NCBI GenBank assembly: GCA_022539475.1
Contig: VCMS01000128.1
Location: 180,476-244,475 of the forward strand
Length of the DNA stretch: 64,000 bases
Direction of reading: 5' to 3'
Origin: Gracilaria domingensis
Taxonomy: Eukaryota; Rhodophyta; Florideophyceae; Gracilariales; Gracilariaceae
Of this stretch, positions 1,452-64,000 are shown piece by piece (position 1 is the first letter of the stretch; every line of letters begins with the position of its first letter). The position numbers and the translations under genes are program-made. The notes under the pieces were generated by a model. It did no database searches, had not been told where the DNA came from, and saw only the letters and a list, made by a program, of their open reading frames with translations.

Positions 1452-1526
<75 letters not shown>

Positions 1527-1904: not shown

Positions 1905-1950
<46 letters not shown>

Positions 1951-18949: not shown

Positions 18950-19175
18950 TATGCTATGTCAGCAAATTTCTCACTAAACACTAGATTTGGATGGATGATT
19001 CTGGTTTTAGTTTCTGGTTGATACGATACTTTGTAGATTGTTTGGGCGTAAGCAAAACAAACAGATACGGAGTTTGCGAAATAATTTGTATTTGCATTTA
19101 TTTGAATATTACATTTCTCGTGGAGAGCCTCATATCCATTTTGGGAGATATGACACGCAATATGTTCGTCGAATT

Positions 19176-28370: not shown

Positions 28371-28425
28371 TCAAAACCGTAAGTTCATGGTCGCCCAGGC
28401 GTAGCGACCGCTGAGTTGGGGAGTG

Positions 28426-46459: not shown

Positions 46460-47383
46460 TCAAATCCCTCCCATCCTTCTCTCCTCCCGTCCCCTCATAA
46501 TCCCCTTCGCAGTCCTCGCTACCTCCGCCGCACTCCTAAACCCACTCACCACTGGAGCTCCGACTCCCTCCCGCGGCACCTCCTCCACCACCTTCTTCAT
46601 CTCCTTACGCCTCTTCTTCAGATGGCTCTTCCCATCCCCAATCCCACCACCCTTTGTCTTCGGTGTCACAGGGGACCCCTTCTGCAGCGCCACCTTTCCC
46701 GCACTTCCCTTCTCCGTCTTTCCCTCCAAACCTCCTTTCACCGTCTTCTCTTCCACCAATCTTTGCCTCTTGCCCAGCTCCTTCATCTCCTTCTCCAGCA
46801 TGTCCAACCTCTCGTTCAGAAACATATTCTCCTCCAGCAACTCTCTAACCTCCCTTCCCGCACACTCCACTATCCCATACACATGATTCCTCATCTCCAC
46901 TCCCAATACCGACAACGAATTCCGCAGGCTCGAAATCGCCTCAACCGAAGCACCACTACCACCCCCACTCAGCACCACACCGCCCATTTCCGTTACAATC
47001 TCCACAATTCCATCGTGCAGTCGCTCCTTCATCACCAACCCCAACATCCCCACCCTCGCCTTCATCTCCCCCACAAACCGCATCTCCCTGTCACTCTCTC
47101 CGCCCCCACTCTCCATCTGGTCTCCAACCTGTAACTGACTCAAATGCACCGCACCCCTTCTCTCCATTGCGACCCCCTCCACCTCCAATTTTACCCCCTT
47201 CTCCACCTCATCACCATCCCCTCTCCTTGCCTCACACTTCTTTCCTTCATCGGTCACTTCCTTGTTCTGCGACATCCGACCAGCCGCCGTAACCACGTCA
47301 TCTTCCCGCTTTGGCGTCGGCGGTACCTCCTTCGCCTCCAACAGCGCCAACAGCTCCTCATCCTTCACGTATCCGTTCGACAT
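46460..47383 (-). CDS. coiled-coil protein of unknown function (307 aa)
   Basis: Start chosen at 47383 (MSNGYVKDEELLALLEAKEV), the first ATG with a charged, gene-like sequence behind it; the open frame extends further up but without support. The protein is rich in Glu, Lys and Arg. A central leucine-heptad segment (LLEENMFLNERLDMLEKEMK, residues about 190-215) predicts a coiled coil. A basic tract (SHLKKRRKEMKKVVEEV) could be a nuclear localisation signal, and the end is RSAAEVARTAKGIMRGREER. A TTAAATA-like box (minus strand, about 47567-47573) lies 185 bp upstream. No family recognised. The plus-strand frames over the same DNA are pyrimidine-rich shadows. Confidence 0.6.
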   Translation of the reverse strand: MSNGYVKDEELLALLEAKEVPPTPKREDDVVTAAGRMSQNKEVTDEGKKCEARRGDGDEVEKGVKLEVEGVAMERRGAVHLSQLQVGDQMESGGGESDREMRFVGEMKARVGMLGLVMKERLHDGIVEIVTEMGGVVLSGGGSGASVEAISSLRNSLSVLGVEMRNHVYGIVECAGREVRELLEENMFLNERLDMLEKEMKELGKRQRLVEEKTVKGGLEGKTEKGSAGKVALQKGSPVTPKTKGGGIGDGKSHLKKRRKEMKKVVEEVPREGVGAPVVSGFRSAAEVARTAKGIMRGREERRMGGI

Positions 47384-47599
47384 CTTCAGAAGAAGAAGTA
47401 GTAGTTGGATCGAAGTTTTCGCAGCGATACAGTGCAGTCGAGTTAAGCTGTGCTGTCCACCCCCACTGTCCAACCACACGGGCTATATCTAGCACCATGA
47501 TTGTCCCTGTTTCCCTAATCCCATTTCCCGCCAAAACATCTACTGTACACCTCCGCACCTTCCACTATTTAAGCGCCCCCCCTCTGTCCCCTCTTTCGC

Positions 47600-48023: not shown

Positions 48024-48731
48024 CTAACCAACCTTTCGAAAACCAGCTATGACATGAGCTGGGTTACTCGAGCCAAAAATGGCAGATCCTGCAACTAAAA
48101 TGTTTGCACCGGCCTTCACTACTCCTTTCACAGTACTCAGTCCAATACCTCCATCCACCTGTATCCCTATTCTTGGGTACAACTCCCTTGTATTTCGCAC
48201 CTTATCAAGAACACCCTCCATAAACGCCTGTCCTCCAAACCCTGGCTTTACCGTCATGGACAATAACATATCTAGAACTCCTTCCTTCATAAGTGCTTCT
48301 ACGACCTTTATAGACGTATTCGGGCGCAACGCAACTCCAACCTGCATTCCCATCCTTTTAATTCAGTTACATAATTCCTTCAACACCACGTTCTATTCCT
48401 CAGTTGGTACCTCGCACTTTTTTAGTCCCTTAGCCACACTCTCGATATGAAATGTGACTCCGTCTGCGCCTGCTTCTGCAAGCTCTTTTATCCATCGCCC
48501 AGGATCTGATACCACCAGATCACAGTCCAAAAAAAATTTCGTATGCCTCCGCAACGCTTTCACAACAGGCGGTCCAGCAGTAAGGTTCGCCACAAAATGA
48601 CCATCCATTACATCTACGTGCAGCCACTCCGCTCCAGCCTCTTCCATTGCACTCGCTTTATCTGAAAGGCGAGCAAAGTCTGAAGCCAAAACTGATGGCG
48701 CTATAATTAAACGAGAATCCATACTGAACAT
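48024..48731 (-). pseudogene. ribulose-phosphate 3-epimerase, with two in-frame stops
   Basis: The enzyme interconverts ribulose 5-phosphate and xylulose 5-phosphate in the pentose-phosphate and Calvin cycles. Family blocks are clear: LIIAPSVLASDFARL, HVDVMDGHFVANLTAGPPVV, GADGVTFHIE, GMQVGVALRPNT, MTVKPGFGGQAF, IQVDGGIG, GANILVAGSAIFG. A TAG (48393-48395) and a TGA (48363-48365) stand in the same frame between FHIE and GMQVG, without a shift. The metal-ligand His of the usual D(C/V)H(L/M)MV block is Asp (LDCDLVV) and the PGFGG block has Lys for Glu. A TATAAAA box (minus, 48779-48785) is still present. No transit peptide is visible. Most likely a recently dead paralogue. Confidence 0.75.
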
Positions 48732-49186
48732 CGATAACTTCAGTAACGCCAAACCCGTCCCTCCCAGACATACTCCTCTTTTATACCTCAATAAAAAAAG
48801 AAGATTATGGCAATCCGAGTGAAGCTATAGAACCCGTTCACGTCATTTATGAAGCCAAAATGGCTCCTCTCATCCTGTACTCAAGCTCCCCGTAACTCGT
48901 AATTTACAACTCAGGTTCGAATTCTGTTTCATTCATTGTACACTTTCTACTCTTCCACCTCCTTTTCATAAAGCATCACCACACTTTGTGGCATGTCATC
49001 TCATACAAGCTTTATCATTCATTCAGTACCAATACATATCATACATTTCGCTCACTTTCACAAGGTGAACCATGTTCCCGTTCTGCGCTTTCCAACCGTT
49101 TGTACCTAAGTATCACTCTTTACCCCAGCAGTTTTCCGCCCTATCTTCCATTTTTATCGTCACACAAAAACAATCGAACACTTGCA
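48732..49186. other. divergent intergenic region
   Basis: Carries the TATA box of the epimerase pseudogene (48779-48785, minus strand). The remainder is pyrimidine-rich A+T DNA leading to the ATG at 49187; no other feature seen. Confidence 0.4.
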
Positions 49187-50087
49187 ATGAACTCCCAGTC
49201 CGACATGCCTCCGACTCCGCCTCCGAGTCCCAGATACTCTGACGTCCCTCAGGCCTCATCTCCCACCCGAAGGACTCTAGCCGTTATTGTTGGAAGGGGG
49301 CGTATAGGTACCATGCTGGCGAACGAACAAGATATGGTCATTTCCGCACAAGAATTCTGCAGCATGGCTGCTACCTCTCATCTTTCTGATGTACCGATAT
49401 AGTTTGTGAAAGAACGAACACCCTGGAGACCGTAATTCAGGCTTGCCCTTATTCGCTCAGAGCGAATCTCGTTTTCTTCCAGAATGGAGACATCATACCA
49501 TTGGTTTCGAAGCTCGGTGTGGACAAATTTTCAAAAGTTGTCCTATACGTTGGTGTCCTTTCAAGAAACGCAGCTCCGCAGGATGGCTTCACTCCTCAAA
49601 GTCCAGATGTCTCACTGTCGCAACAGGAAAGTGGGCCTCCAACGTTGCAGACAGGTTTAGATCTATGGGTCTCACTTGCGGGGTTGTCGACGAAGACACA
49701 TTTCTTGTAAGCTATTATGAGAAGCTCGTGTGGCTATCAGCGTTCAACATCGTCGGGGCCTCAACAAGTTTCATTCCTATGGACTTAGTCGCTACGGATT
49801 GCAGTACGGTTGTGCTCACAATAATGAAAGAGCTTTTGAAGATAGTTACGCTTAAGACAGGTACTACTTTCAACCTAGAAGAGACCTTTGGGCGAATTCT
49901 TGCATATGGAAATACTCTCGTTGGCTTCCCTACTTCTTTCTCCGACTTTCAGTTTAGGAACGCGTACTTCTACGACTTTTCCCGCCAAGAAAGAAACATC
50001 GTAGGCGGTGACCCCGCTCCTTTTCATACAAACTACGTCAACGTTGTTAAGGAAAAGTTATCCCCCTCCCCATTCCCCCAGCTTTGA
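49187..50087 (+). pseudogene. ketopantoate-reductase-like protein, broken by two frame changes
   Basis: From ATG 49187 (MNSQSDMPPTPPPSPRYSDV) a Pro-rich head leads to LAVIVGRGRIGTMLA, a Rossmann GxGxxG motif. At about 49400 the frame ends, but coding pattern continues one frame over: TDIVCERTNTLETVIQAC, LVFFQNGDIIPLVSKLGV (compare the QNG block of 2-dehydropantoate 2-reductases), KVVLYVGVLSRNAAPQDG. Near 49610 it returns to another frame: ADRFRSMGLTCGVVDEDTFL, YYEKLVWLSAFNIVGAS (the EKL-W-N block), and a C-terminal helical domain to 50087. The superfamily is fairly clear, the substrate is not. Introns could in theory repair the frames, but no convincing GT-AG pairs were found, so a pseudogene is preferred. 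Confidence 0.5.
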
Positions 50088-50713
50088 GGTTAGAACACAT
50101 GACTTTTCGGTGTTCTAAACCTTTTAGAGAGAGTTAAACATAAAATTTACTTTATCGAAATGACATGTTCCTATTATATTACTTATATTGTTCGTCCTTC
50201 TGTGGTTCAAATACGCCCTTTTAAATCCTACATCCCTTATCACTAATACCTCGCGAAGTTTTTGCTAGATGGAAAAGGGTCATTCCACATCATTAAAGTG
50301 CACGATACTAGTAACAAAACAAGTACAAAATTGTGATATTTCTGAAGAACTAAGCCTTCGCAATACTTGGGGCACCCGTATAAAGTAAGGTAAACCTTTT
50401 ATGGGTTTCAACCCTTAATGGAGGTTGTTTTACTGTTCTTGATTTCTAAGCTCATGTTGAAGATATTCATAGCTTTCTTTACCCACTTGAACCCGTACAT
50501 TTAATTTATGACTAAATCATCCTTTCTTTACTGCAGATCGATGCAAAATCTTCTCGTTCTAGTAACGTTTTAAAACAGTACTACAATACTCGTATATGGT
50601 CGTCCTTAGACTCTTTTTATACTACGAAACACCTTGTGAACATCAATCACATCCTTCTCATTCGTATACTCACACCCATTTACAAAACGAACCATTTCGA
50701 AAGCTTTCAAAAC
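50088..50713. other. A+T-rich intergenic region
   Basis: No gene, repeat or RNA recognised. A TTTTTATACT TATA-like box at about 50614-50623 lies roughly 95 bp before the ATG at 50714. Confidence 0.4.
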
Positions 50714-51577
50714 ATGTATAACTCAGAAGTTAGAGCCCAAGAAGTAACTACTCAGCAGCTGGCTAACGAAATATTCGAAAATGGCTACGTCGTGATTAGT
50801 GATATTGACGGTTCTCTAAAAAGAGCTGGGGACAACATTCCTGCCGAAACAGTCAAATGTATGAAGTACATCAATGCACGCGTTGGTTTCGGAATTGCTA
50901 CTGGGCGAGATATAGAGGATGCCGAGAGTTTCATGGAGCACCTGGGTGGCTACACTTTTGGCATCTCTGGAAACCAAGGCGCACGGGTCAGATTATCGAA
51001 TGGTACCGAAATTGATCAAGACCTTGACAGGGAAGGATACGAAAGATGTGCAGCCGAACTTGAGAGACTTGCACTCTCCTTAAATGAATCGCACGGACTT
51101 CACGAAGAGCGTCAACAAGCAGTTGTGAGCACTAGAAAAGACAGTGGACTCCCTAACTTCACGTACAATGGACTGTCGAAGTGGAAAACAAAAGTTAACT
51201 CCGGTATTTCAAAAGTGTTGACATCCTTTCCGAACCTGCTTGCGTACCCTCAAGATGAAAACTGTGACATAGGGGACATTCGTTTCACGAAATATAGTGG
51301 GGCGCTAGCCTTGGTTGAAAACGAACCCCAGTTCGACACACATTTAATCGTTGCTTTCCGGAATGCTTCCAATGATGGCCCTCTATATGAAATGGCAACC
51401 CTGGCAGTTCATGTGAAGGGAGACGACCATCCAGCAGCGGTAACATATCTTGTTGATGGGGTGGAGGACGTGCATGAGACCATCAGAAGGGTGGCAGAAC
51501 TGTACGCGTACACAAAATGCAAGTGTCAATGGTTTAGAAATGGTCTTGGAATTTCTTACGATGCCTGTAATACTTAG
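50714..51577 (+). CDS. HAD-superfamily, trehalose-phosphatase-like protein (287 aa)
   Basis: Start ATG 50714 (MYNSEVRAQEVTTQQLANEI). HAD motif I is SDIDGSL (nucleophile Asp and acid/base Asp), motif II is FGIATGRD. The sequence then follows the trehalose-6-phosphate phosphatase plan, with FGISGNQGARVRLSNG (compare the GxHGa strand) and an end ATLAVHVKGDDHPAAVTYLV / VEDVHETIRRVAELY like the final strands of that family. The conserved GDDxTDE metal motif is not recognisable at its expected place (EPQFDTHLIVAF), so activity is doubtful, or this is a divergent subfamily. Cytosolic, no signal peptide. It ends 52 bp from the end of a convergent, dead paralogue. Confidence 0.6.
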   Translation: MYNSEVRAQEVTTQQLANEIFENGYVVISDIDGSLKRAGDNIPAETVKCMKYINARVGFGIATGRDIEDAESFMEHLGGYTFGISGNQGARVRLSNGTEIDQDLDREGYERCAAELERLALSLNESHGLHEERQQAVVSTRKDSGLPNFTYNGLSKWKTKVNSGISKVLTSFPNLLAYPQDENCDIGDIRFTKYSGALALVENEPQFDTHLIVAFRNASNDGPLYEMATLAVHVKGDDHPAAVTYLVDGVEDVHETIRRVAELYAYTKCKCQWFRNGLGISYDACNT

Positions 51578-51629: not shown

Positions 51630-52624
51630 TTATGATTCATGGTGGTTTTTATCGTGCTGCTTTTCCTTGTAGCCGTACAACAGAGCCACCAGCATAATTG
51701 TCGAATGTACATCCTCCACGCTTTCGAACAGGTTGTGTACTCCACCCGGGATACAATCTTCTTTGACGTGAACGCCGTACACGTCTACCTCTTGCAAAAG
51801 ACCGTCGCTCAAAGCACTTCCGAACGTCACGACGTCATCCGTATCAATAAATCTCGGTTCATTATCCACAAGATTTGCTCCTCCGCTTCCTTTTCTGTAT
51901 CGCTTGTCCACAATTTCGCAACTTTTATTGCCGGGATAGATACAAACGCATCCATCTTCTGCAATGGGTCCCCAAAAGCAGAATCTACTTCTTCTCTCCA
52001 CTGCCACAGTTTGTTGTACACGAAATTGGGAAGGCCACTATCACTTCTGGTCTCCACGAACCCCTTCTCATCATCATTCACAATACCATGCCTCCTATTC
52101 AAATCCCTTGCCAGGAACAGTAGTCTGTCAACAGTGTGGTCAAGGGTATGATCATTGAACGCAGCCTTAATTTCTCTCTCGTCAGAGAAACGGAGGAAAG
52201 CTCCATGATTCGCCGACACACCAAACTTATACTCTCCGAGTCCTTCCATTTTCCGCTCCACGTCGCCCACATCACCCCTTGTGACAAGTCCGAAACCAAC
52301 ACGTTCGTCAATGAACTTCATACACTTCACAACTTCTTCTGGAATTGACTCTCCTTCTCTTCTCAACGTTCCATCAACGGAACTTAATATACCGTAACCA
52401 TTGGCATATATGAACTTAGACAAGGTAATGGCTGAAATTCCCGCCAAGTCTCTCTGTTCCTCTTCCATTTTTCCTGATACAGTCACCATGGTGCCACAAG
52501 TACCGCACAGACAGGAACTGTATAGACTTCTCAGTTTCATACTTCTCTTAAAAGCAACCTTAAGTGCAGTTTCAGAAGTGGTAGGACGTTTCATGTTCAA
52601 TTGCGAATTGAATGGTGCCACCAA
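51630..52624 (-). pseudogene. convergent paralogue of the HAD protein, frameshifted
   Basis: Minus-strand relative of the gene at 50714: LSKFIYANGYGILSSVDGTL, VKCMKFIDERVGFGLVTRGD, SGLPNFVYNKLWQWREEVDS, then (other frame, from about 51945) YPGNKSCEIVDKRYRKGSGG, VDNEPRFIDTDDVV and GVHVKEDCIPGGVHNLFESV to 51630. HAD motif I has lost its nucleophile (SSVDG instead of SDIDG) and the reading frame shifts once near 51940-52000. The N terminus to 52624 is longer than in the intact paralogue and may not be real. Inverted tail-to-tail placement suggests an inverted duplication. Confidence 0.7.
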
Positions 52625-52804
52625 TGATGTTAACGATACCGAGCATGTTGCATGTTGAAATTAGACGCAACTGGACCAAAGACGTATGACATTTGTTCAA
52701 ATACCAGCCTGCCGCACCTTTTCTATGTTCATATGTATAGCCTTACAATAGTATACTACTCTTAATACTCGCAAGACACTCATAATTTACTAATCATCTC
52801 ATTC
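52625..52804. other. left edge of the modification island
   Basis: A+T-rich DNA between the dead HAD gene and the dioxygenase gene stop. No terminal inverted repeat matching the right side (63.6-64 kb) was recognised. Confidence 0.4.
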
Positions 52805-55789
52805 TCATCCACTTCGAGGCGCTCGCAGCCTCATTATTGGCAAATCGTCATCACTACTGCTCTCGAGCACTTCGGTTCTACCGGCCTCCGCTTCCACACC
52901 AATCTTCACGACCACTTGGTCTTCGTCCATGTCAACCGCCCCACCCTCCTTATCGGACAACTGTTCATCCTCCGCCTCCTCCTCCTCGTCACCATTGACA
53001 AACGTGGGTCGGAAATCCTGCACCTGATGAACAGCATCAGGTAGTGCGTAGCCCTCTGGTACCATGTACATGTGGTATCTAACCAGCAAATCCATAGACT
53101 CGAGCCTATCCACCTTGTCCTTCCCACTTGCTCCAGCATGTGTCACATCACCACGGCCCACGAATACAGAGTACGGTGGGATGATTATCTTCTTCGCTGG
53201 ATACACCTCCGACATCACTCGCAACTGTTGGTTGTTCATCCCCACCAGTTGATGGCTTCCAGCGCTCACCCAGAGAGGAAAGCGCTCTTTCCCAGAGGCC
53301 ATTAAAAAGTATCCGGGGTTACCAGTATTCATTGTTTCCTTCGTAACCAGACCACTGAGGTCGGTGTGCAGCGTCTGGCGCTTGCACTTTCTCGTGGTCC
53401 CCAGAAATCGACCACCAGTTTTCGGAGTGTACATCTTCACAGCTTCCCTTTCACTGTCCCATAGTCCCAAAGCCGCAGCAATTGTACCCATTCGAACATC
53501 AAGTAAAGCACGCCATCTTACAACCCACCTGAGCTCCTCATTATCCTCCGGCTTCTCCACCGTACCCCAACGTGTCGACATCACTCTCCCCTCAAATGGT
53601 CCATCGCTCCGGTCCTTCCATTCTTCATCATCGATGATGATTTGAACAAACGACTTCTGTTCCTCCCCTTTCGGTATATCCTGCATCGCTCCATACTCAT
53701 TCTCGAAGAATTCCACCAACTTCCCCGACACATCTCCGAACTCCCGAACTTCTTCCCACTCCTCCCATTTAGAGACACCATTATCCGTCGCAAAGCCATC
53801 AAGCACGCAATATCCATTCTGCCTTAGCTCAGCTTGCATTCGGGCGAAGAACATTTGCCCAAATTCGTCATGCTCCTTCGCAGCAACCCACAGCACCTCT
53901 TCATCATCCATACCTGTCGGCCGAGTACGAGGATACTGCATACCAAATGTCTCCGCCCGTAGGCGATGTTCAGCCCTTGCACCGTGCCAAAACACAAGAT
54001 GGTGTGCATCTCTGAGATCTGAGACACTTAGCAGCTCCGACCTATGTGCCTTCGGCAAGTGAATGACTCTGAGCCAGGGGTCCTTGTGCTCAATTATGTT
54101 CTTCCCTTGCCATTCTTGCGGTCTCAGCCTGACATACCCGCACCATGATGGGTTCGCTGGGCCATCATATGGGTCTCCTCGAACAAGTCCGTGCTCTTCA
54201 GATTCCTGAAGAGCTGTAGGTAACTCGTCATCAAATGACCCCCCACCTGTCTCTTGCTGTTCGTCTGGCGCAGCATCTTTTTCGAGGGTGATAACCCGTG
54301 GAACTGTCACAGCAAGAAGCTCTTCGTCATCCACAAATGCAGAACTGCCTGCGTTCTCTGCATTCCGTCCCTCTTCCAATGCCACGAACTGAACCTTCAT
54401 CGACCTTCCTCTCAGCACATGTTCATTTATTTGAGACATCAGGTCATCCGCTGTCATGTTGTTCAGAGCAGATCTCATCTGTTGTGTGAAAGACTTTCTC
54501 TGTTTCTTTCTCGGCGGACCCCGCTGTTCTTCTTCAGAGCTATCCAGAACTTTTATGGCACCTCCATTTCGGCCGTGCTCAATTTCCCTATAACTCAGCT
54601 GCGCCCGTTCTCTTGCACTTCTTCGCGGCTCCCCTTCTTCACTGGTAGATGTTACAGCAGCAGCAGCGGGAGTTCTTCTCTTCGTCACGGACTGCTTCAC
54701 TGGCGCGGGGGGCGCAATTACCTTGAGCATCGTCCGCAATCGATTCTGAACGGAAGTTGTTGCAGTTCTAATTGAGTTCGTCCTGCTCCGAACACGCGGT
54801 AATGTGTTGAAGTGCACAACTTGTCCCAAAGGGAACTGATACACAGCTGCGTTGTTTTCTGGGTCTTCAACGTCATCTTCATTCGATGGAGCAGAAAGAC
54901 TGACTTCGCGTTTCTGGAACACTTCCATGGACTCTTCATCGTTCAGTTCATTCCTCACTGCTCGAGCCGCGCGGAACAGAGACACTGCTCTATCATAAAA
55001 GAAAGCTCGAACCTCTTCAAAGCTTTTCCATTGCTTTTTCTTCGTCGACTTGCCCTTCAATAGAAACATCTGAAGACAGTCTAGAATGAAGGAAAACTCC
55101 TCGGCATCCAAAACATATGGCGTAGTATGGGACAGATGTGTGAGACCTATCTCACTCACAGTCTCACATATATCCTCGAAATGGGCCAGCACTCTCTCAC
55201 GAGACATGAGTTGCAGGGCGACATTGGCATATCTCAGATACTGACGCTCTTGCACGGTCCCAATCAGTTGGCTCTCCTTCAACACTTCTGTCACTTCTGC
55301 AGGATCCACGTATGCCGGCGTCACCCCCTCAATATCTTCAATTAGAATGGCGACCACACTAACTGTAGAGTGTATCTTGTCTGCAAACATCATCCTTTGC
55401 ATGGTACTCGTCGACTCATTGAGGTACGAAGCAACACATAACAATTCCTTCATCCCAATGGGCCTCCCATCTCTTCGTATCAGCAGATTGCAACGCCAAA
55501 ACCTCGCTAATCGCTTCCAATTCGGTGCACCAGTCGCTGCCAAATATTGTACAGCTTTCAGACGATACAAACCATCTACAATGAAGCACTTCTTCGTTAG
55601 AGGTCCCTTGTCAGTATCCCTCTCTCCCGTAGTAGCATCTTGTGAGGCCACCACTGGAGAACCCATCGACTGCAATATCCCCTGCTCCTCCATACTCTTC
55701 ACAAGGGCTTCACCGTGACGTTTAATTACTCCACGGAGTAAATTGGGCGGAGTGTCCACCAGAGTGATGTCAACAGTAACAACAACCAT
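52805..55789 (-). CDS. ParB/Srx-like domain fused to a 2-oxoglutarate/Fe(II) dioxygenase (994 aa)
   Basis: First good ATG at 55789 (MVVVTVDITLVDTPPNLLRG); the frame is open further up to a TAG at 55838. Residues 1-95 fit the ParB/Srx fold: a VTVDITLVDTPPNLLRG start, HGEALVKSMEEQGI helix and FIVDGLYRLKAVQYLAA (compare VIDGxHRxxAA). A long linker has acidic runs and a basic NLS-like PPRKKQRKSFTQQ near residue 426. The C-terminal 350 residues contain a dioxygenase core: NGYCVLDGFATDNGV strand, LHTDLSG (HxD, near residue 808), GRGDVTHAGASG (distal His, near 884) and VRYHMYM (Arg, near 900), the iron and 2-oxoglutarate ligands. An acidic tail follows. ParB-like domains bind or cleave DNA; such dioxygenases oxidise nucleic acid bases or proteins. 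Together with the methyltransferase gene at 58893 it suggests a DNA-modification role. The exact subfamily is uncertain. Confidence 0.72.
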   Translation of the reverse strand: MVVVTVDITLVDTPPNLLRGVIKRHGEALVKSMEEQGILQSMGSPVVASQDATTGERDTDKGPLTKKCFIVDGLYRLKAVQYLAATGAPNWKRLARFWRCNLLIRRDGRPIGMKELLCVASYLNESTSTMQRMMFADKIHSTVSVVAILIEDIEGVTPAYVDPAEVTEVLKESQLIGTVQERQYLRYANVALQLMSRERVLAHFEDICETVSEIGLTHLSHTTPYVLDAEEFSFILDCLQMFLLKGKSTKKKQWKSFEEVRAFFYDRAVSLFRAARAVRNELNDEESMEVFQKREVSLSAPSNEDDVEDPENNAAVYQFPLGQVVHFNTLPRVRSRTNSIRTATTSVQNRLRTMLKVIAPPAPVKQSVTKRRTPAAAAVTSTSEEGEPRRSARERAQLSYREIEHGRNGGAIKVLDSSEEEQRGPPRKKQRKSFTQQMRSALNNMTADDLMSQINEHVLRGRSMKVQFVALEEGRNAENAGSSAFVDDEELLAVTVPRVITLEKDAAPDEQQETGGGSFDDELPTALQESEEHGLVRGDPYDGPANPSWCGYVRLRPQEWQGKNIIEHKDPWLRVIHLPKAHRSELLSVSDLRDAHHLVFWHGARAEHRLRAETFGMQYPRTRPTGMDDEEVLWVAAKEHDEFGQMFFARMQAELRQNGYCVLDGFATDNGVSKWEEWEEVREFGDVSGKLVEFFENEYGAMQDIPKGEEQKSFVQIIIDDEEWKDRSDGPFEGRVMSTRWGTVEKPEDNEELRWVVRWRALLDVRMGTIAAALGLWDSEREAVKMYTPKTGGRFLGTTRKCKRQTLHTDLSGLVTKETMNTGNPGYFLMASGKERFPLWVSAGSHQLVGMNNQQLRVMSEVYPAKKIIIPPYSVFVGRGDVTHAGASGKDKVDRLESMDLLVRYHMYMVPEGYALPDAVHQVQDFRPTFVNGDEEEEAEDEQLSDKEGGAVDMDEDQVVVKIGVEAEAGRTEVLESSSDDDLPIMRLRAPRSG

Positions 55790-55837
55790 CCGGTACTGAT
55801 TGAGGTTCACCTTTGGTACCTTCTGACGAATTCGTCT

Positions 55838-56335
55838 CTACGTCTTGCTCCGAGTAGGTGTCCCTTGTGTTCCAGACCGCTCGCCAGAAACACTTGAACG
55901 TGCCATTCTTGCGGACAGAAGCACAACGTCATCGTCCTGCTGCTCCGCAGTTTTTGGTGCAGTTTGGGGTACAAATGGACCAGCTCCTTGTGCGGATTGC
56001 GCATCCGCGTCTGGAAGGGGACCTTTTATGATCTCATCTTCCTCTTCTTGCACAGCCGTCCCGTGCTGAGCAGTCTGTTTCGACACAGAAGTTTCCCTTG
56101 TGCCGACGGTCTGATTCATCGCAGGAGATGCCCTTTTCGACGCAGTGGGCTTCGTAGCGGAGGTAGACTTTGTTTGGCCTGTCCGCTTCGTAGCTGGAGA
56201 TGATCTCGTCTCCATAGTCCGCTTCGTAACAGACGACGGACCGGCCTGCGGAGGTGCTACTGATGCGTTACCTCTCGGTGTTGATGAACTTCGAATTGGC
56301 TCCGTGCGGCTTGTCGGCGTCATCACCTCACTCAT
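55838..56335 (-). CDS. hypothetical Ser/Thr/Lys-rich linker-like protein (165 aa)
   Basis: ATG 56335 (MSEVMTPTSRTEPIRSS) begins a low-complexity, basic sequence with repeated SxxTKRT motifs (SSVTKRTMETRSSPATKRTG, QTKSTSATKPTASKRASPAM), then an acidic patch and GPFVPQTAPKTAEQQDDDVV. It ends at TAG 55838-55840, but the same frame continues into the dioxygenase gene (RRIRQKVPKVNLNQYR). It may therefore be the disordered N-terminal region of that protein, separated by a stop codon or a missed intron. Function unknown. Confidence 0.4.
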   Translation of the reverse strand: MSEVMTPTSRTEPIRSSSTPRGNASVAPPQAGPSSVTKRTMETRSSPATKRTGQTKSTSATKPTASKRASPAMNQTVGTRETSVSKQTAQHGTAVQEEEDEIIKGPLPDADAQSAQGAGPFVPQTAPKTAEQQDDDVVLLSARMARSSVSGERSGTQGTPTRSKT

Positions 56336-56350
56336 AGCGCTCACCGTTCG

Positions 56351-56722
56351 TCACTTGGACGCCGGAATGCTGACTGCCCCCGGTTTCATAATTTTTTCAT
56401 CCCAAGTAGCGGCCTTCCGGAGATCCTGGATGTATTTTGGAAGATCCAGGACCTCCGCCTGGTAAGGGTAGAACGTCTGACCGCTTCGATTGATGAGAAT
56501 ATTATAAACCACCACAAGACCTGGGTCCAATTGCTTCCCGTTCAACTCGCGGCGTAGAACACTTCCAATTCCATGCAACAACGCTTCCCCGACTATCACC
56601 TTTCCTTCATTCTCAATATCCATCTGCAGAGAAACCAGCATTCTAGCTTGCAATGATCGAGTGCTCCGCCGAGTGCGAGGAGTCATGCTTTGCGTACGCT
56701 TTCGAACAAGAGTTGGCTTCAT
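56351..56722 (-). CDS. hypothetical basic protein, first leftward frame (123 aa)
   Basis: ATG 56722 (MKPTLVRKRTQSMTPRTRRS) lies about 80 bp from the ATTTAAAG box of the left inverted-repeat arm (56798-56805). A basic N terminus is followed by a compact alpha/beta-like stretch (NEGKVIVGEALLHGIGSVLR, LDPGLVVVYNILINRSGQTF, YQAEVLDLPKYIQDLRKAAT). It ends at a TGA in the same frame as the two following leftward frames. No family recognised; possibly the first exon of the large leftward gene. Confidence 0.45.
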   Translation of the reverse strand: MKPTLVRKRTQSMTPRTRRSTRSLQARMLVSLQMDIENEGKVIVGEALLHGIGSVLRRELNGKQLDPGLVVVYNILINRSGQTFYPYQAEVLDLPKYIQDLRKAATWDEKIMKPGAVSIPASK

Positions 56723-56793
56723 GTTGAACAGCTATTGCAGTGAAATTTGTATATCAACGATACGCTCGCTCTGGACGATATAATAACGGAGTC

Positions 56794-56885
56794 GAGCCTT
56801 TAAATGGCGACTTACGCTGGGCACCCCCGATTTCGGCAGCTCCTCCTAGCGCACTGCCAGTCTCGTCCGTGTCCTGTCCGTGGCC
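56794..56885 (-). promoter_or_regulatory. left copy of the mirrored promoter
   Basis: About 90 bp here are the reverse complement, with few mismatches, of 58783-58870. The block includes GAGCCTTTAAATGGCGACTT (TATA-like TTTAAA) and a CGTCCGTGTCC repeat. It lies just upstream of the first leftward frame; an additional ATATAATA is at 56779-56786. Confidence 0.7.
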
Positions 56886-57089
56886 GCTCTCACGCTGATT
56901 GTACGCTTTAGAGTGGTGGAGTTCGCGCAGTGATCACTCACGCGAGCAATGGTCGCGCTCTCTAATCGTGCTCTTCAAATCCTTTCCATAGTAGTCAAGA
57001 GTACACTCATTCACATTCATGTACAGCCTACTCCCGCCAATACACGTGGACAGCGGCGCCAACGTACTGGCGGCCGGGTGTAGCGAAAT

Positions 57090-58605
57090 CACTGCGGGGG
57101 GGCGTGTTTTGGAAGGTCCCAGGATGGCGCCAGAATGTGGCCAGAACGTGCCCGTGGGCGAGGGGGGGTCGGTCGTGTTAAGGTAGGTACCCTAACACGA
57201 CCGGTATCCCCCGCCCGCGGTCACGTTTTCGGCGATTTTTTGAAAAATGTGCGATTTTATGCCCGCGGGCGCTGGGGTCCGGTCGTGTTAGCGTACCCTA
57301 ACACGACCGACCCCCCCCCCCCCCCTTCCCCCCCCCTCCCCGCCCGCGGGCACGTATTGGGCGCATTCTGGCACCCTCTGGAGACCTCTCAAAACACTCC
57401 TCCCGGCACTTCCGGCACCCACCGCGTCACCTCAATGCACCAACGCGTCTTCTCCATCCTTCAAACGCTCCCCAAATTCCCACGCGCACCACACCTACCC
57501 TCTCTGCGATCACCATCTCCCTTCCGAGGTGCTACACTTCACTGAATCAGTGACCGAATCTGTATAATTGAGTGGTTTCCATCTGTTCTACACGCTGCAG
57601 CAGTATATGCACCAGGCTGCCCTAATTATGCAACATGGCACTTGACCGGCGAGCGCGCGAGGGAGGTGTCCCACCACAGAATCCCCGGGAGCAAGCCAGG
57701 CTGCGATAGAGGCTACGGACTGTGACGCTTTGTGTTTGTGTCACAAAGGTGGTGAGAGGAGAGGGAGAGCACGTACGGAAGGGTGTGAAGCGCGTTCGCA
57801 ACGCCCTTCACACCCTGGTGTCAGCAGCGGTCGGTGTCGTGGGTTTGGAGTGAGACTGTTGTTGGGCGCGGTCGCTGGCGAGCACAGCGGCGGCCCTCCG
57901 ATGGGCTGCATGATCGTAACGAACTTACGGCTCCGGGATGGAATTGCGTCGTGTACAGTCTATGACTGGCGTAAAGATTAGTTTACAGAAAGTTCTAAGT
58001 TGTTTCATACCTTACCACTAGACTACAAAAGACTGCTATCGATGGCACTCTTAAGTATTGCTGCGCCAGAGGCGGCAGCCGGGCCATCGGCGGTGCATCC
58101 AGTATATCAGCCCCCGTCGTGGAACACGGCGCAGAATGCATAGAGTCCCCTACATCATTGACTCTCGATACCATCCTCTTCTCTAGGGTAGGTGTGGGGC
58201 GCGTGAAAATTAAGGAGTTTCTGGAGGGTTTAGAAGACGGGATGGTGCACTGAGGTGACGCAGTGGGTACAGGAAGTGCCGGAGAGGGGGGTGTTTTGGG
58301 AGGTCCCGGGAAGGCGCAAGAATGTGCTCAAAACGTGCCCGCGAGCAGAGGGGGAGGCGGGGGTCGGTCGTGTTAGGGTACGTACCCTAACACAACCGGA
58401 ACCAACCGCCCGCGGGCATAAAATCGCACATTTTTCAAAAAATCGCCCAAAACGTGCCCGCGGGCGGGAGGGTCGGCTCGTTTTAGGGTACCTATCCTAA
58501 CACGATCGACCCCCCCCCCCGCACGCGGGCACGTTCTGGCCACATTCTGGCACCCTCCGGAGACCTCCCAAAACACTTCTCCCGGCACTTCCGGCAGTGC
58601 TTTCG
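57090..58605. repeat. large inverted repeat with four near-palindromes
   Basis: 57090-57530 and 58190-58605 are inverted copies. Each arm itself contains two near-palindromes of about 28-33 bp built from GGTCGTGTTAGGGTA and its complement: 57171-57202, 57281-57308, 58366-58397 and 58475-58507. They are separated by GCCCGCGGGC palindromes and poly-C/G runs (for example 57309-57330). The palindrome cores contain TTAGGG and CCCTAA back to back. The outer parts share GAGACCTC(T/C)CAAAACACT and CACTTCCGGCA. No coding content. Confidence 0.8.
57546..58189. other. unique centre of the inverted repeat
   Basis: About 640 bp without an inverted counterpart. An 83-codon frame (57730-57981, MCLCHKGGERRGRARTEGCE) has no recognisable domain and biased composition, so it is not called. 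A GGTGTGAAG...CTTCACACC short inverted repeat lies near 57781-57820. Confidence 0.45.
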
Positions 58606-58782
58606 CTGCACACGGCGTAAACATATATCAAACTAGAGAAAACCAGCGCTTCACACCCACTTGGACCGCGACTATTAGCACAATACGCGACCTTTGTAAT
58701 AGCTCCGAATCGCGACGTGGCCGACACGCGACGCTTTCGCACCCGCTTAAAGCGGCACAGACACCGACCTCAGAAGGGAGCG

Positions 58783-58892
58783 GACACGGACACGGACGAG
58801 ACTGGTAGTGCGCTGGGAGGAGGTGCCGAAAGCGGGGGTGCCCAGCGTAAGTCGCCATTTAAAGGCTCGCCTCCGTTCTTTGCGCTGAAGCG
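58783..58892 (+). promoter_or_regulatory. right copy of the mirrored promoter
   Basis: Reverse-complement partner of 56794-56885: GGACACGGACGAGACTGG, GGGTGCCCAGCGTAAGTCGC and ATTTAAAGGCTCG. The TTTAAA box (58860-58865) is about 30 bp before the ATG at 58893, a tight TATA spacing. Confidence 0.7.
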
Positions 58893-61800
58893 ATGGATTC
58901 CACCGATGATGGAGAGAAGATACATCCTATCGACATGAGTGCTCCGCCTCCGGCGTTCCATGCATATGTCAGACTTTTATTGGTACTTCGCGATGCTTTG
59001 GCAAACAGCGATGGAGGCCCTGATCAGCCACAGGACGTGGGGTTTAGAGGGCTAATAGAGTTCTGCCCCGAGAACTATAAGGATATTCCGGAGGCAAGGA
59101 AGATGTTTGAGGAGTCCACTAACTCCAAGAACCTGCAGAACTTGAAAGTGCAACAGCTGCGAAAGAGTGTTGTGAATAACAAACCTGTGGAGCAACAATA
59201 TCTTGTAACGAAGCTTCTTGACAAGAAGGACGGGGATGAGGACCAGAGACTCCCCGATTATTTACTCCTCTCTATGGATATGGGTATATACCTACCGGTG
59301 CGATGCCTGGTTGGTTATTTCATGACCAGGAGAAAGCAGGTTCTGAAGACGACAGTGTTCATCTCACCAACAGCTGCGAACCCATTTGAGGTCGTTAAAT
59401 ACTTATCATACCTCGGCCACATAATGGGAGAGAACGACAACATCAGAATGATGAAGAAGAAACAACCGAAAAAGAAACGAAAATTGAACCATGCACCATC
59501 TGTGTACATACCCACTTTTACGACGTTCTCCAAATACAACTATGATCGACTGGGATTCGCTATCAGTGAGGTCGTATGGGCATGGAGTTGTTTTGCGGCT
59601 CATCTTGGATACACAAACGTTCAGCACATGGTATAACCATACATTTACATGAATATGCAGACTTCGAAGTATACAGCGCTAGAGACACGGGAGTCTGGTT
59701 ATGCCCCGCCGAGCCAGAGTACTCGATTGAACACACAGGATGTGCCACAGAGCAGTACTAGTGGATCGGTGGAGACCTTGAGTGATGAATGCGATACAAA
59801 CCTCCGAATACTGGCTAAGGAATTTTTGACAGACCTCGAAACCATATGCACCCACGATAGCCTCTATAGCTTACGGGCTGATCAGATGAGGAACTGGATA
59901 GAGTTCTCGGAGATGCGGATGGATACCGTATCTGGTTCTGACTCCGGTGAATTGCCTGCACGATTTCAGAACTTTTCGGAGTTGCTATGGAAACCGATAC
60001 AGGATATGCGTCATGCGGCAGGGTTCAATGTGGGCATTCATGGGAAACCCGATATTGAACTGACGGAAACTCCTAAAACTTCCGGTAATGCCGAACCTTC
60101 TTCGACCAAGTCTGCCCCAGCCCCACCTCGTCGAGAGTATATAGATCTCGTGAGCTCCGATGGCGACGACTTCGAGAAGCCGGTGAATCGTGCGGAGCAT
60201 GAATCTCGGGTTGCCGGGTACAACATCCAAAAGACTGGTATTGAGCCGCCCATGAAGGGGATATCCAGTCTCCTTCGAATGAATATGGACAAGGTGTGGA
60301 AGGGGATGAGAAAGTCACACTTTGTAGCATACAACTATGACATGAAGGACCTGAGGCACACACACGAAACGTTTGTGAATCAGAGTGAGATTTTATGGGG
60401 TGAGGCACAGCTTGTCCTAACAGACCCTCCCTTCAACACTCGAAGGAAGAGGAACAAACGGAATAGTTCTCACGATGTCTTCAGTGAGGATGACATGATC
60501 CGTACGGCTGACTTAATAAGTTCCGCGCTTCGGTCAGGTGGGCACTTCATCATATTCTGTGCCATGGCACAGTTTCATGTTTGGCACAGGATACTTTCGG
60601 AAACGGCGAGTACGAAAGATGAAGCTGGAAGCGAAGGTAAACCAGAACTCATTCCTTCGTTTAAAGTGGATGGGAATCCACTGGTGTTCATCCGGGATCG
60701 AAGTAATGTTGGAGGGAATCCACGGAAGTTTGGGATACAGCCCGTAACGGAGTACGCCGTTCATGGGGTGAAGCGTGGATTGCGACCATCGGAGGAAGCC
60801 AGTCTTACTCCATTTGAGGAGAATAATTTCATTCCTTCTTTTTTCCCGGCTAACAGGAATGTAATTGACCGGGTGCCAAAACCGAGAGCGGGTGAGTGGT
60901 TGAAATGGAAGGTAAATGAGCCAGGTAGTTGAGTACCACGTGCGCAGTACATAAGACCGGAGCAGAAGTCCAGGAAGTTGATGAAAGAGTTGATATGTCG
61001 GTTCACAAGACCGGGTGATCTTGTCATGGACATGTTCGCGGGAACGTTTTCTACGGGTATGGCGTGCCTATCGCTGACAAAATATTGGACGTTCTTGGGG
61101 TGTGAGAAGAATAGGCCATGTTTCAGCCATGCGGAGCACCATATAACGACTCTTATGGCCGAAGTTCTTCGCGGGGGGAAGAATGATATCGTAGTTGAAC
61201 AGGAGGTGGTGGATGCTGATTCAACGACTTATGAACGGGTTCCACATCGGGACCGAGGTCGGCTTGAATGGGAGGCTCTATTTGGATACCCCCAGTACCA
61301 AGTGATTCCTGCACATATTACTCAGTTCCTAGGAAGATACTGGAAGGACTGGGAGTTTGTCGACAAGTGTGGACAGCATACTGTAGATCTTTGGGACGAG
61401 AAGTACCGAGGAGCTCTGAATCTAATGGATATGCATATGCTGTTGACTGTTGAAGCCAATCGCTATCGCTTACATGTAGCATCTTCTAAGATTCGACATC
61501 CCCGTGCCGGTGTGGGGGTATTCACAGAACATAAGATATTGGCGGGGGAAACTATCTGTCATTTTTATGGAACTTTGGTATACACGGATCTGACGAACCG
61601 GAAGGAAAGACACTCAACGTATGGAAGTGGCTGTCTCGGAGCAACCCCTGTGCGGTACAAGTTGTTTTCTATGATGGTCACTGTGACTGGTTCGGAGTTT
61701 CTGCCCCTGAGGAACAGACCAGGACAGGCTCAGGATAGAAAGGAGAGCAAAGTCTACATTGTCCCGGCGCCTTTCTGTATCGGGGGCTTCATTAACGACG

Positions 61801-62031
61801 CCGGATATCATGCCGGGGATCCCGATTTATCGCAGCCCCGGTCGAACAGAACTCGAAGTGCTAATGTGAAGATGGTGGAAGCAAAAGTCCGTGATACAGT
61901 TTAAGTCCGGCCTTTCTAACTATGCTCTACTTCGTTGTAGAGCAGTAAGAGATATTGAGAGGGGCAAAGAGTTGTATTTCAACTACGGAGAGCAGTACGC
62001 CTGGGACTGGGCTTTGACATTGGAGCAATAA
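58893..62031 (+). CDS. DNA amino-methyltransferase fused to a SET domain, with inferred small introns
   Basis: Start ATG 58893 (MDSTDDGEKIHPIDM). The unknown N-terminal region has a KKKQPKKKRKLN NLS. The TAA at 59634 and the TGA at 60930 are in-frame and each sits inside a possible GT-AG intron (59631-59660, 30 nt; 60912-60947, 36 nt). The methyltransferase has motif IV AQLVLTDPPFNTRRKR, SALRSGGHFIIFCAMAQFHV, then motif I RPGDLVMDMFAGTFSTGMAC and FLGCEKNRPCFSHAEHHI: the IV-before-I order of beta-class N6-adenine/N4-cytosine enzymes. The SET domain begins HPRAGVGVFTEHKILAGETI, has GGFINDAGYHAGD and NVKMVEAK; a 55-nt intron (61891-61945, with CTAAC branch-like site) would join it to LRDIERGKELYFNYGEQYAW, the normal SET end, and a TAA at 62029-62031. 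The resulting protein would be about 1005 aa. If the small introns are wrong, the gene is split or damaged. Confidence 0.7.
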
Positions 62032-62272
62032 ATGAGTGCAGTACCGAATAGAAAGTAAATATGCTTGCGAATGTTGCAGCTGCCTCCAATACGCGTTGTA
62101 AATGTACACTGGAGCTCTTCCTCTATTTGTAACGGCGATATTTGCGACCCATTGTGCACCTCAAATTCCTAAAAAGCAGGAACTGCTGAGTCCCCCGGAA
62201 TATCTGAACCATGCACATCCCCTACCCCCTCCCCCCAACAATTTCGTTCATTACCCCGTTTATCTCCACAAC

Positions 62273-63562
62273 ATGGGTATAACGCCGAGAAAGCGAAATA
62301 GTACGCAGCGGAACAAGAGTGGACAGAAGAGGAGAAGAGCATCAGATGATACGAATCAATCTACAAGCACGGCAATTCCTAAACGGAAGTCATCCTCGAC
62401 GAAGGAGAGAGTCAGTGGGTGTCCTTCTACAGTACTCTCTCGCCCATCTCGCAGCGGAGTGTCTTCCAGGATTGCGTCAAGAATTCGTGGATCAGCCAAC
62501 GATATCATTCCGTCAACTGCCGATAATGCAAATCGTGCATCTGTCTCTGCTCCCCAAGATGATGAGGTAACTCGGCCCAGCGGGTCAGGACAGGAGGGCA
62601 TGACAACTGGAACTGAAGAGGTTCGTATGACACCAAAACCTTCACGTCCCCCGCCGATATCGAAGACCGGAGCTACTGGAGCGCGGGTTACGCCGCCCAG
62701 TGGATCTGGAAAACAAGGGACATTGACGAGAAGTCGTAAGAACCCTAGTATGTTAAGATCGTCACGTCCCTCTCTGCCTTCTAGAACTGGGGCCACTATG
62801 AATCGTATTATGCCTCGCAATGGGTCCGGACAAGGGAGAAAGACAAAAAGAAATCGAGAGACGACTGATCGGGGAGCTATTTCTCGACCTTCCCCTCTTT
62901 CCAGAACGGGGGCCGTTGCAGCTCGTACGAGGCCCAATTCATCTGATATACGATGTTATGGAGGAGGACAGACACGGGAGTTGGAGCTGGGAGCCGTGCC
63001 AAGGGTGGAGACAGAAAGCCTGCAGCCTCTCGTTCCTAAGGGTGTAGCACATGAGGATAGTTCTGATAACGAAATAACACCGAATCCTGCGGCATTACCG
63101 GAGCCTATCGCCGAAGAGGCTAGAGAAATACCGGAAAATATCCACACTGGTGTGAATTCAACCTCTATGAACAGACGTGATCTTTTAAATGAACTGAATT
63201 GCTTAAAAGAAAAGGTTAAGACGCGACAGGAGGACTTGATGGTTCGGGGTATTCTAGTGAAGGTCGCCCAAGAGCATATTACGGCTTTGAAAAAGAGGCT
63301 TGAGGAGAAGGATCTAGTCATTGAAGGGCTAAGGGGGGCACTGAAACAGGAGAGAGATAGGATTACACGTGCTGGTGAACCTGGGCAGACAGGTCGAAAG
63401 ACTCTATGGAGAATCCGGGATCATTCCAAGGCTTTACGGAGTTTCAGGCGGAGGAACGAAGGAATGAGAGATATGGATTGTGAACGCATAGAGTATCGCG
63501 AGATTCCTCTCCCTCGCAGACGTGGAGTCTTTCTGCTTGTCCTTTTGGCATGTTTAACATAA
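62273..63562 (+). CDS. basic repeat protein with coiled coil (429 aa)
   Basis: Start chosen at ATG 62273 (MGITPRKRNSTQRNKSGQKR), which begins the basic region; the frame extends up to 62102 without support. Residues 50-230 hold about four diverged 35-residue repeats of the form (S)RPS-P-S(R/K)TGA---R--P-(S/N)GSG(K/Q), rich in Arg/Ser/Gly. An acidic linker follows, then a predicted coiled coil (RRDLLNELNCLKEKVKTRQE, ITALKKRLEEKDLVIEGLRG; residues about 300-370), and a hydrophobic end (RGVFLLVLLACLT). No family recognised. The chromatin-like composition and position 240 bp after the methyltransferase-SET gene, same strand, suggest it belongs to the island. Confidence 0.55.
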   Translation: MGITPRKRNSTQRNKSGQKRRRASDDTNQSTSTAIPKRKSSSTKERVSGCPSTVLSRPSRSGVSSRIASRIRGSANDIIPSTADNANRASVSAPQDDEVTRPSGSGQEGMTTGTEEVRMTPKPSRPPPISKTGATGARVTPPSGSGKQGTLTRSRKNPSMLRSSRPSLPSRTGATMNRIMPRNGSGQGRKTKRNRETTDRGAISRPSPLSRTGAVAARTRPNSSDIRCYGGGQTRELELGAVPRVETESLQPLVPKGVAHEDSSDNEITPNPAALPEPIAEEAREIPENIHTGVNSTSMNRRDLLNELNCLKEKVKTRQEDLMVRGILVKVAQEHITALKKRLEEKDLVIEGLRGALKQERDRITRAGEPGQTGRKTLWRIRDHSKALRSFRRRNEGMRDMDCERIEYREIPLPRRRGVFLLVLLACLT

Positions 63563-64000
63563 TATGTTGTCTTTGGATGCCTTTTCTGTGCTTTTGAGAA
63601 CATCCGTGAATGAGGGACAGAACGCATCAAAAGAGTGAAGCGAGGGGGTTTGTATATATTACAGGGCTTTCCGTTTGGTCCAGAGAATGGACAGAATTTC
63701 TTAAGCCTAGAATATCGACAATATACTTGCAAGCGAGAATGGACACTCGACTTAGTTTGTCTTGCGATTGAACTGAAATTTCTGGTGAAGATTTAAAGAA
63801 GGGTCAGGACTTGAGCGAAGAGGTTTCAAGGATTGGCTCTGGACTGCGTAGAGACTTGCTAGAACGAATGGCATTGCGTCTGCATTCAGAATGCGGAAAC
63901 TCGATCAAGTGTATAGGGAAGTATGCACTACGTGAGGTCATCGGATGCCTTGGCGTAGCTCGTCGGAGAGTTGGAATAATGAGGTGAAAGAGGATAGGCG
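63563..64000 (+). other. right flank with a short coding-like frame
   Basis: From 63772 to a TGA at 63985-63987 the frame reads TEISGEDLKKGQDLSEEVSR, LRRDLLERMALRLHSECGNS and YALREVIGCLGVARRRVGIM, an amphipathic helical sequence without a start ATG at its beginning. It may be an exon of a gene that continues outside or a chance frame. A TATATATT stretch is near 63652-63660. Confidence 0.3.

What the first reader, a model, noticed from the sequence alone, without database searches (positions are those of the whole stretch)
52805..63562. Divergent island joining a ParB-dioxygenase and a DNA methyltransferase-SET fusion
One side encodes a ParB/Srx-like domain fused to a 2OG/Fe(II) dioxygenase (HTD...H...R); the other a beta-class DNA amino-methyltransferase fused to SET. 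ParB-like domains are joined to such methyltransferases in phages, and dioxygenases that oxidise bases accompany some eukaryotic transposons. A compact eukaryotic unit able to write DNA methylation, oxidise bases or proteins and methylate histones, driven by a mirrored promoter, looks like a new selfish or epigenetic system, perhaps a large DNA transposon or endogenous virus.
Basis: partly seen in the sequence, partly recalled or inferred. Interest (0 to 1): 0.88.

Follow-up and report, generated by a model that had tools for sequence, protein, structure and literature searches.

The report
Giant algal transposon carrying chromatin-modifying genes
The two odd genes belong to a jumping DNA element of up to about 23,000 letters, with hundreds of matching ends in a red-alga genome, that carries a transposase together with enzymes predicted to methylate DNA, methylate proteins and oxidise bases or proteins, which suggests a selfish element that handles its own chromatin marks.

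Summary
The minus-strand gene has an HxD...H...R dioxygenase pattern (PhyH below cut-off) after a DGxHRL, ParB/Srx-like stretch that no model confirms. The plus-strand gene is a beta-class DNA amino-methyltransferase fused to SET; a copy without stops scores PF01555 3.8e-15 and SET 1.7e-7. Both window genes are broken. In the window's genome (77.9 Mb) the dioxygenase gene has at least 45 matches and the methyltransferase at least 97. Where listed as neighbours they sit head to head behind an inverted 100-bp promoter repeat, inside an element whose longest copies are about 19-24 kb. It has defined ends (CGTCTGT...ACAGACG; 573 left, 562 right pattern matches), 2-bp target duplications (7 of 11 perfect; one empty site) and a Plavaka transposase (PF18759, 9e-19). 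HAD genes ride along. Two copies are 99.9% identical over 10.7 kb. Fungal Plavaka elements carry TET/JBP and oomycete elements carry SET; a methyltransferase-SET fusion plus a dioxygenase without TET/JBP match in an algal Plavaka was not met in ten open-library paper searches. Best reading: anti-silencing or self-marking cargo; biochemistry untested.

The parts
45992..46027 (+). Left end of the element; TCTGTGTTCTGCAAAGTGG... from 45994 (the outermost CG of 11 copies examined reads CT here)
   Evidence: Homology to copies C50, C323 and C19 stops here; 573 matches to this end pattern in the genome, reversed control 0; position rechecked
46460..47482 (-). ORF of 340 aa, no known domain, inside the element
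   Evidence: no Pfam; region shared with C50 and the C19 copy
48344..48803 (.). Extra stretch in the window copy, absent from C50 and the C19 copy
   Evidence: Gap between aligned blocks
48804..50087 (+). Coding-looking stretch of unknown function inside the element (last ORF 49410-50087)
   Evidence: no Pfam match above cut-off
50516..51577 (+). HAD-like phosphatase gene 1 (PF08282)
   Evidence: 6.2e-10; 115 scored matches in the genome, 102 without a stop in the matched stretch
51630..52660 (-). HAD-like gene 2, split over two frames in the window copy
   Evidence: 319-aa open frame in copy C91 with PF08282 9.5e-6
52805..56722 (-). ParB-like(?)-2OG dioxygenase gene, about 1305 codons, stops at 56351-56353 and 55838-55840 in this copy
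   Evidence: 45 scored genome matches
53033..53950 (-). Dioxygenase-like region with HTD...H...R
55055..55831 (-). Putative ParB/Srx-like region (DGLYRL here; DGLHRL or DGNHRL in P0001, P0003, P0004)
   Evidence: not confirmed by any model
56782..56880 (-). Promoter arm of the minus gene, inverted copy of 58781-58880
   Evidence: 93% in the window; 98-99% in C238, C163, C91, C164 (74 nt) and C465, 93% in C169
57073..57501 (.). Palindromic unit of about 430 bp, inverted relative to 58185-58616 (78%)
58185..58616 (.). Second palindromic unit
58781..58880 (+). Promoter arm of the plus gene
58893..62031 (+). DNA amino-methyltransferase-SET gene; stops at 59634-59636 and 60930-60932 and a frameshift near 61.9 kb in this copy
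   Evidence: 97 scored genome matches to its methyltransferase part
60408..61115 (+). Beta-class N6/N4 methyltransferase domain (DPPF ... DMFAGTFST)
   Evidence: PF01555 2.2e-14
61509..61989 (+). SET domain (approximate, transferred from the C465 copy)
   Evidence: P0006 7.8e-6; C465 copy 1.7e-7 over profile 1-105 of 105
62273..63401 (+). 5' half of gene 3 (834-aa open frame in copy C50), cut by a deletion
63399..64000 (-). Fragment of the Plavaka transposase gene; the contig ends here
   Evidence: About 81% to the transposase region of copies; full gene PF18759 9.4e-19 in C50 and 1.2e-18 in C28

Best explanation
The island is the middle of a large Plavaka-type cut-and-paste DNA transposon (longest copies about 19-24 kb) of a Gracilaria-like red alga. 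Shown: defined ends, 2-bp target duplications, an empty site, a transposase gene inside, hundreds of ends, very young copies, and joint presence of the dioxygenase and methyltransferase-SET genes with their mirrored promoter in several copies. Inferred: the transposase moves the whole element; the shared promoter arms express the two cargo genes together; the methyltransferase (DPPF motif, so probably N6-adenine) marks element DNA, SET methylates histones or another protein there, and the dioxygenase oxidises methyl marks or proteins, so that the element escapes or resets host silencing. The window holds a broken copy. Confidence 0.9 is for the transposon identity; for the chromatin role about 0.5.
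For: Copies: 45 scored for the dioxygenase ORF, 97 for the methyltransferase, 115 for HAD gene 1, lower bounds by the tool's own statement. Ends: 573 left and 562 right pattern matches with up to 3 mismatches, reversed-pattern controls 0. Different flanks begin at one point in six copies. 2-bp duplication in 7 of 11 copies (P=1e-6; control 9 of 110 mismatched pairs) and an empty site in C465 for the C27 copy. Plavaka PF18759 9.4e-19 and 1.2e-18. C50 and C323 99.9% identical over 10.7 kb. 15 of 45 dioxygenase matches have a listed methyltransferase within 8 kb in the divergent arrangement, 0 of 45 in another arrangement within 12 kb. dN/dS of methyltransferase-SET 0.33-0.38 between window or C169 and eight young copies. 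Fungal Plavaka with TET/JBP and oomycete transposons with SET are precedents (PMC12730594: abstract, passages and section 4.2 read).
Against: No activity of any cargo protein was tested. ParB has no support beyond a motif, the dioxygenase only sub-threshold. The dioxygenase gene is weakly constrained: dN/dS 0.59-0.76 between the window and seven copies, 0.32-1.11 among those copies, and window/P0001/P0002 differences are nearly as common at columns conserved between P0003 and P0004 (8.2-10.5%) as elsewhere (8.6-14.4%). Among young methyltransferase-SET copies against C465 dN/dS runs from 0.17 to 0.70 on few changes. 30 of the 45 dioxygenase matches had no listed methyltransferase partner (both lists are capped; some lie at contig ends). 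2 of 5 one-sided right ends lack the terminal CG (C28, C238), as does the window's left end. Termini differ from both described fungal Plavaka groups. 4 of 11 target duplications have a mismatch. The transposase copy number was never obtained (search tool busy). The one 10-kb copy examined lacks most cargo.
Confidence: 0.9

Rival explanations
1. An endogenous virus or virus-like element rather than a transposon.
For: Length of about 23 kb, few introns, SET and methyltransferase genes such as giant viruses also have (recalled).
Against: No relative of the two cargo proteins in four scans of viral contigs; no capsid or packaging gene among the element proteins scanned (not every stretch was scanned); a Plavaka transposase and short 2-bp target duplications instead.
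Confidence: 0.03
2. A repeated host gene cluster spread by segmental duplication, with a transposon nearby.
For: C169 and the window share 12.4 kb at 98.2%, with no codon difference in 1053 methyltransferase-SET codons compared.
Against: Copies share exact ends with different flanks, 2-bp duplications and an empty site; 573 and 562 end matches.
Confidence: 0.02
3. The cargo genes are passengers or serve transposition mechanically (for example DNA-binding and coiled-coil proteins in the transpososome) and not chromatin silencing.
For: 11 of 49 end pairs are 10.1-10.8 kb long; the one examined (C19) keeps the left part, promoter and most of the transposase but lacks most cargo, so cargo seems not needed in cis; weak constraint on the dioxygenase gene.
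Against: Methyltransferase-SET under purifying selection (dN/dS about 0.36); its domains are chromatin writers. The fungal precedent for anti-silencing is itself not experimentally validated.
Confidence: 0.25

Closest known systems
Fungal Plavaka (PlavakaA/B) DNA transposons, some with TET/JBP (Kojima 2025, PMC12730594; abstract, passages and section 4.2 read)
   Same: Plavaka transposase, 2-bp (or 2-3 bp) target duplications, a 2OG-type dioxygenase as cargo
   Different: Red alga; termini CGTCTGT..ACAGACG instead of TGT..ACA or CATCA..TGATG; dioxygenase without any TET/JBP match; added methyltransferase-SET and HAD genes; up to about 23 kb
Amoebidium 'Plavaka giant repeats' (PMC11244446, passages seen)
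   Different: There many genes encode tyrosine recombinases in tandem clusters; none was seen in the proteins scanned here
HarbingerS and MuDR transposons of Phytophthora with SET (cited in PMC12730594)
   Same: SET methyltransferase carried by a DNA transposon
   Different: SET here is fused to a DNA amino-methyltransferase; different transposase
Bdelloid N4CMT (PMC8885841, passages including the abstract seen)
   Same: Beta-type bacterial amino-methyltransferase joined to a chromatin domain in a eukaryote
   Different: Chromodomain reader rather than SET writer; described as a captured gene, not as transposon cargo
Retrotransposon DNMTs of dinoflagellates and charophytes (PMC5890265, outline and abstract seen)
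   Same: Mobile element encoding a DNA methyltransferase
   Different: C5-cytosine DNMT in retrotransposons

Membership tests
Plavaka DNA transposons | Plavaka transposase | tested here: met
   PF18759 9.4e-19 (C50) and 1.2e-18 (C28), scores 68.2 and 67.9 against cut-off 26.3
Plavaka DNA transposons | 2-bp (or 2-3 bp) target duplication | tested here: met
   7 of 11 perfect, 4 of 11 one mismatch; one empty site
PlavakaA or PlavakaB subgroup | Termini TGT..ACA or CATCA..TGATG | tested here: not met
   CGTCTGT..ACAGACG in 11 of 11 full copies examined; TGT..ACA lies four bases inside, so neither subgroup is claimed
Plavaka DNA transposons | C(2)C and H(3-4)H motifs with catalytic D, D, E | tested here: inconclusive
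   CHRC is visible in the ORF; catalytic residues were not aligned
Beta-class DNA amino-methyltransferase | PF01555 match with DPPY/F before FxG | tested here: met
   best phage enzymes about 24-27% identical
SET methyltransferase | Full-length SET profile | tested here: met
   1.7e-7 over 1-105 of 105 in the C465 copy; 0.19 in the broken window copy
SET methyltransferase | NHxCxPN motif | tested here: inconclusive
   FIND/YIND at this place in window, P0006 and C465; motif recalled
2OG-Fe(II) dioxygenase | HxD...H...R | tested here: met
   (HTD read in 7 of 8 copies, H and R in 8 of 8)
2OG-Fe(II) dioxygenase | Profile or fold match | tested here: inconclusive
   PhyH 0.045 below cut-off in 1 of 3 members; model pLDDT 29.8
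TET/JBP | TET/JBP profile match | tested here: not met
   No such family listed in the Pfam scans of window, P0001, P0003, P0004 and pieces; that Pfam holds a TET/JBP model is recalled
ParB/Srx | Profile match | tested here: not met
   Only GmrSD_N 0.17 in P0001, below cut-off; ParB is therefore not claimed

The most novel reading that the evidence does not exclude
A eukaryotic DNA transposon that carries a matched writer and eraser: a single protein that methylates both DNA (probably N6-adenine) and histones, expressed from a mirrored promoter with a dioxygenase that removes or converts marks, so that the element sets its own chromatin state and thereby reached hundreds of copies in the genome.
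Probability: 0.35. Interest if true: 0.92.

Novelty: new variant of a known kind. Interest (0 to 1): 0.8.

Why it matters
It adds a red alga to the hosts of cargo-bearing Plavaka elements and joins, in one mobile unit, a DNA amino-methyltransferase-SET fusion and a dioxygenase. With hundreds of ends and some very young copies in one genome it makes the open question of whether transposons edit their own epigenetic marks directly testable with long-read methylation data.

Tried and rejected
A CpG-specific target site was my first reading (CG on both sides in 11 of 11 copies); the empty site and the bases outside the CG showed that CG belongs to the element's ends. Short introns for the in-frame stops were rejected after comparison with homologues: P0002 runs through both minus-strand places, P0001 through the second (its model has a gap beside the first), P0006 through both plus-strand places, and copies C465 and C164 are open over 1055 codons of methyltransferase-SET. 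Structure prediction failed twice, so no fold search was made. Five phage records were fetched to look for a ParB-methyltransferase fusion; in the four with annotation the methyltransferase stands alone, the fifth (L001) has none and was not translated. Phage search with P0004 gave nothing. The profile search A3 returned only P0001 and P0002. The C50 empty-site pattern gave 0 matches. Gene 3 and transposase copies were not counted in the genome. Novelty rests on paper searches in an open-licence library, some with capped lists (8 of 114 papers shown in 52, 15 of 376 in 117); no subscription papers or Repbase entries were searched. In one search the comparisons with L011-L013 were on the wrong strand and are replaced.
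Full report
Check of the observation. The window holds two long divergent genes as described, but both are interrupted. The plus gene carries a beta-class amino-methyltransferase and SET: PF01555 2.2e-14 and a sub-threshold SET (0.19) in the window copy read through its stops; 9.9e-19 and 7.8e-6 in homologue P0006; 3.8e-15 and 1.7e-7 in the C465 copy. The minus gene has HTD...H...R with PhyH at 0.045 in 1 of 3 members scanned. ParB rests on a DGxHRL motif and a sub-threshold GmrSD_N match in one homologue. Both AlphaFold jobs gave unusable models.

First relatives. Protein search found two Gracilaria domingensis proteins (88 and 84% identity, named as a Mediator subunit 15-like protein and SasA by a source) and two ENA proteins (37 and 43%) for the minus gene, and one ENA protein (40%) for the methyltransferase-SET gene. 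At the places of the window's stops these homologues have residues, with one exception (P0001 has a gap beside the first), so the stops are read as lesions of this copy and not introns.

The genome. The window is C128:180476-244475 of a 77.9-Mb, 680-contig genome and ends at the contig end. The dioxygenase ORF has 45 scored matches out of 947 first-look candidates, 21 without a stop in the matched stretch. The methyltransferase part has 97 scored out of 611, 68 without a stop. HAD gene 1 has 115 scored out of 951, 102 without a stop. The tool calls such counts lower bounds; the stop tallies were counted by hand from the tables, the window's own copy included.

The element. Ten methyltransferase loci of 16.8-20 kb were compared, nine of them from the 14 that share one top score, plus C169; several contain assembly gaps. 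To the left of the methyltransferase, homology to the window continues past the dioxygenase gene to the edge of what was fetched or nearly so in C163, C164, C211, C238, C28, C91 and C169; C323 and C465 are rearranged there and C50 has a gap. On the right, homology stops at one sequence, followed by different DNA in C50, C28, C211, C91, C238 and C164. On the left it stops at window 45.99 kb in C50, in the C19 copy and, inverted, in C323. Between gene 3 and the right end lies an open frame of 1051 aa (C50) or 1100 aa (C28) on the minus strand that matches the Plavaka transposase (9.4e-19, 1.2e-18). The window lost about 2.9 kb at 63.40 kb, including the second half of gene 3 and part of the transposase gene.

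Ends and target. The left-end pattern has 573 matches and the right-end pattern 562, with 0 in the reversed controls. Of the first 100 listed left ends, 49 have a listed right end on the same strand within 30 kb (a few share one right end); lengths run from 6.4 to 24.3 kb, 11 of 49 at 10.1-10.8 kb, 15 at 12-15 kb and 15 at 19-24.3 kb. Mean length times copy number gives about 11% of the genome, a rough figure that may be too high. The ends of 11 copies with both ends read CGTCTGTG... and ...GACAGACG. Outside them 7 of 11 have an identical dinucleotide on both sides (P=1e-6; 9 of 110 mismatched pairs agree) and 4 of 11 differ at one base; one empty site, in C465 for the C27 copy, has the dinucleotide once. 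Of five right ends seen from one side, C28 and C238 have another first base pair instead of CG.

Arrangement. 15 of the 45 dioxygenase matches (the window included) have a listed methyltransferase within 8 kb in the head-to-head order and 0 have one in another order within 12 kb; the other 30 had no listed partner, both lists being capped and some matches lying at contig ends. The inverted promoter arms are 98-99% alike in C238, C163, C91, C164 and C465 and 93% in C169 and the window. The one 10-kb copy examined (C19) is an internal deletion that keeps the left part, a piece of the dioxygenase gene with its promoter, and most of the transposase.

Age and selection. C323 and C50 are 99.9% identical over 10.7 kb. 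Methyltransferase-SET dN/dS between the window or C169 and eight young copies is 0.33-0.38; between C465 and the other seven young copies it is 0.17-0.70 on few changes. The protein was thus kept working while the two lineages parted. The dioxygenase gene is less constrained: 0.59-0.76 between the window and seven copies, 0.32-1.11 among those copies, and P0001, P0002 and the window differ nearly as often at columns conserved between P0003 and P0004 as elsewhere. HTD was read in 7 of 8 copies and DGLHRL in 6 of 8; the window itself has DGLYRL.

Mechanism. Most likely the Plavaka protein excises and inserts the element (inferred from family), while the two divergent genes act on chromatin. DPPF suggests N6-adenine as substrate (a PMC8885841 passage lists DPPY/F for N6AMT2; otherwise recalled). 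Whether the dioxygenase acts on DNA or protein is open. Kojima 2025 argues for escape from silencing in fungi, says this is not experimentally validated, and notes that one fungal TET also acts on 6mA; the present element adds a methyltransferase to such a dioxygenase, but with no TET/JBP match.

Known or new. Plavaka with TET/JBP in fungi, SET in oomycete transposons, giant Plavaka repeats in Amoebidium, and retrotransposon-borne C5 methyltransferases are in print. The combination found here was not met in ten paper searches of an open-licence library (listed under Tried and rejected), which does not exclude Repbase or subscription papers. I file it as a Plavaka-type transposon by transposase and target duplication, not as PlavakaA or B, and not as a TET/JBP or ParB carrier.

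Noticed in passing
window 19171-30228: A young Ty3/gypsy LTR retrotransposon: a long repeat pair 9250 bp apart, 99% alike over the 300 nt reported, with protease, RT, RNase H and integrase domains.
   Followed up: partly
window 57073-57501 and 58185-58616; L064 1-1070: Palindromic units of about 430 bp around GGTCGTGTTAGGGTACGTACCCTAACAC fill the mirrored promoter; more pieces are piled up in the C19 copy.
   Followed up: partly
G000:C169:162001-182000 (L040, L041): This copy matches the window over 12.4 kb at 98.2% with no difference in 1053 methyltransferase-SET codons compared; its matched methyltransferase ORF is 100% identical over 431 aa with the same open-frame length, so a broken copy seems to have been duplicated.
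   Followed up: partly
window 2533-4362 and 8315-10786: Two related genes with long SPSPSAS-type repeats.
   Followed up: no
window 15267-18949: Two cysteine-rich proteins built of tandem repeats of about 98 residues.
   Followed up: no
window 1166-2086 (-): E2F/DP-like gene in an 82% GC stretch.
   Followed up: no
window 31648-35249 (-): Long ORFs that look by eye like a reverse-transcriptase element but match no Pfam family.
   Followed up: no
P0001, P0002: The Gracilaria domingensis copies bear misleading names (Mediator subunit 15-like, SasA) and their models skip the dioxygenase core at the same point.
   Followed up: partly
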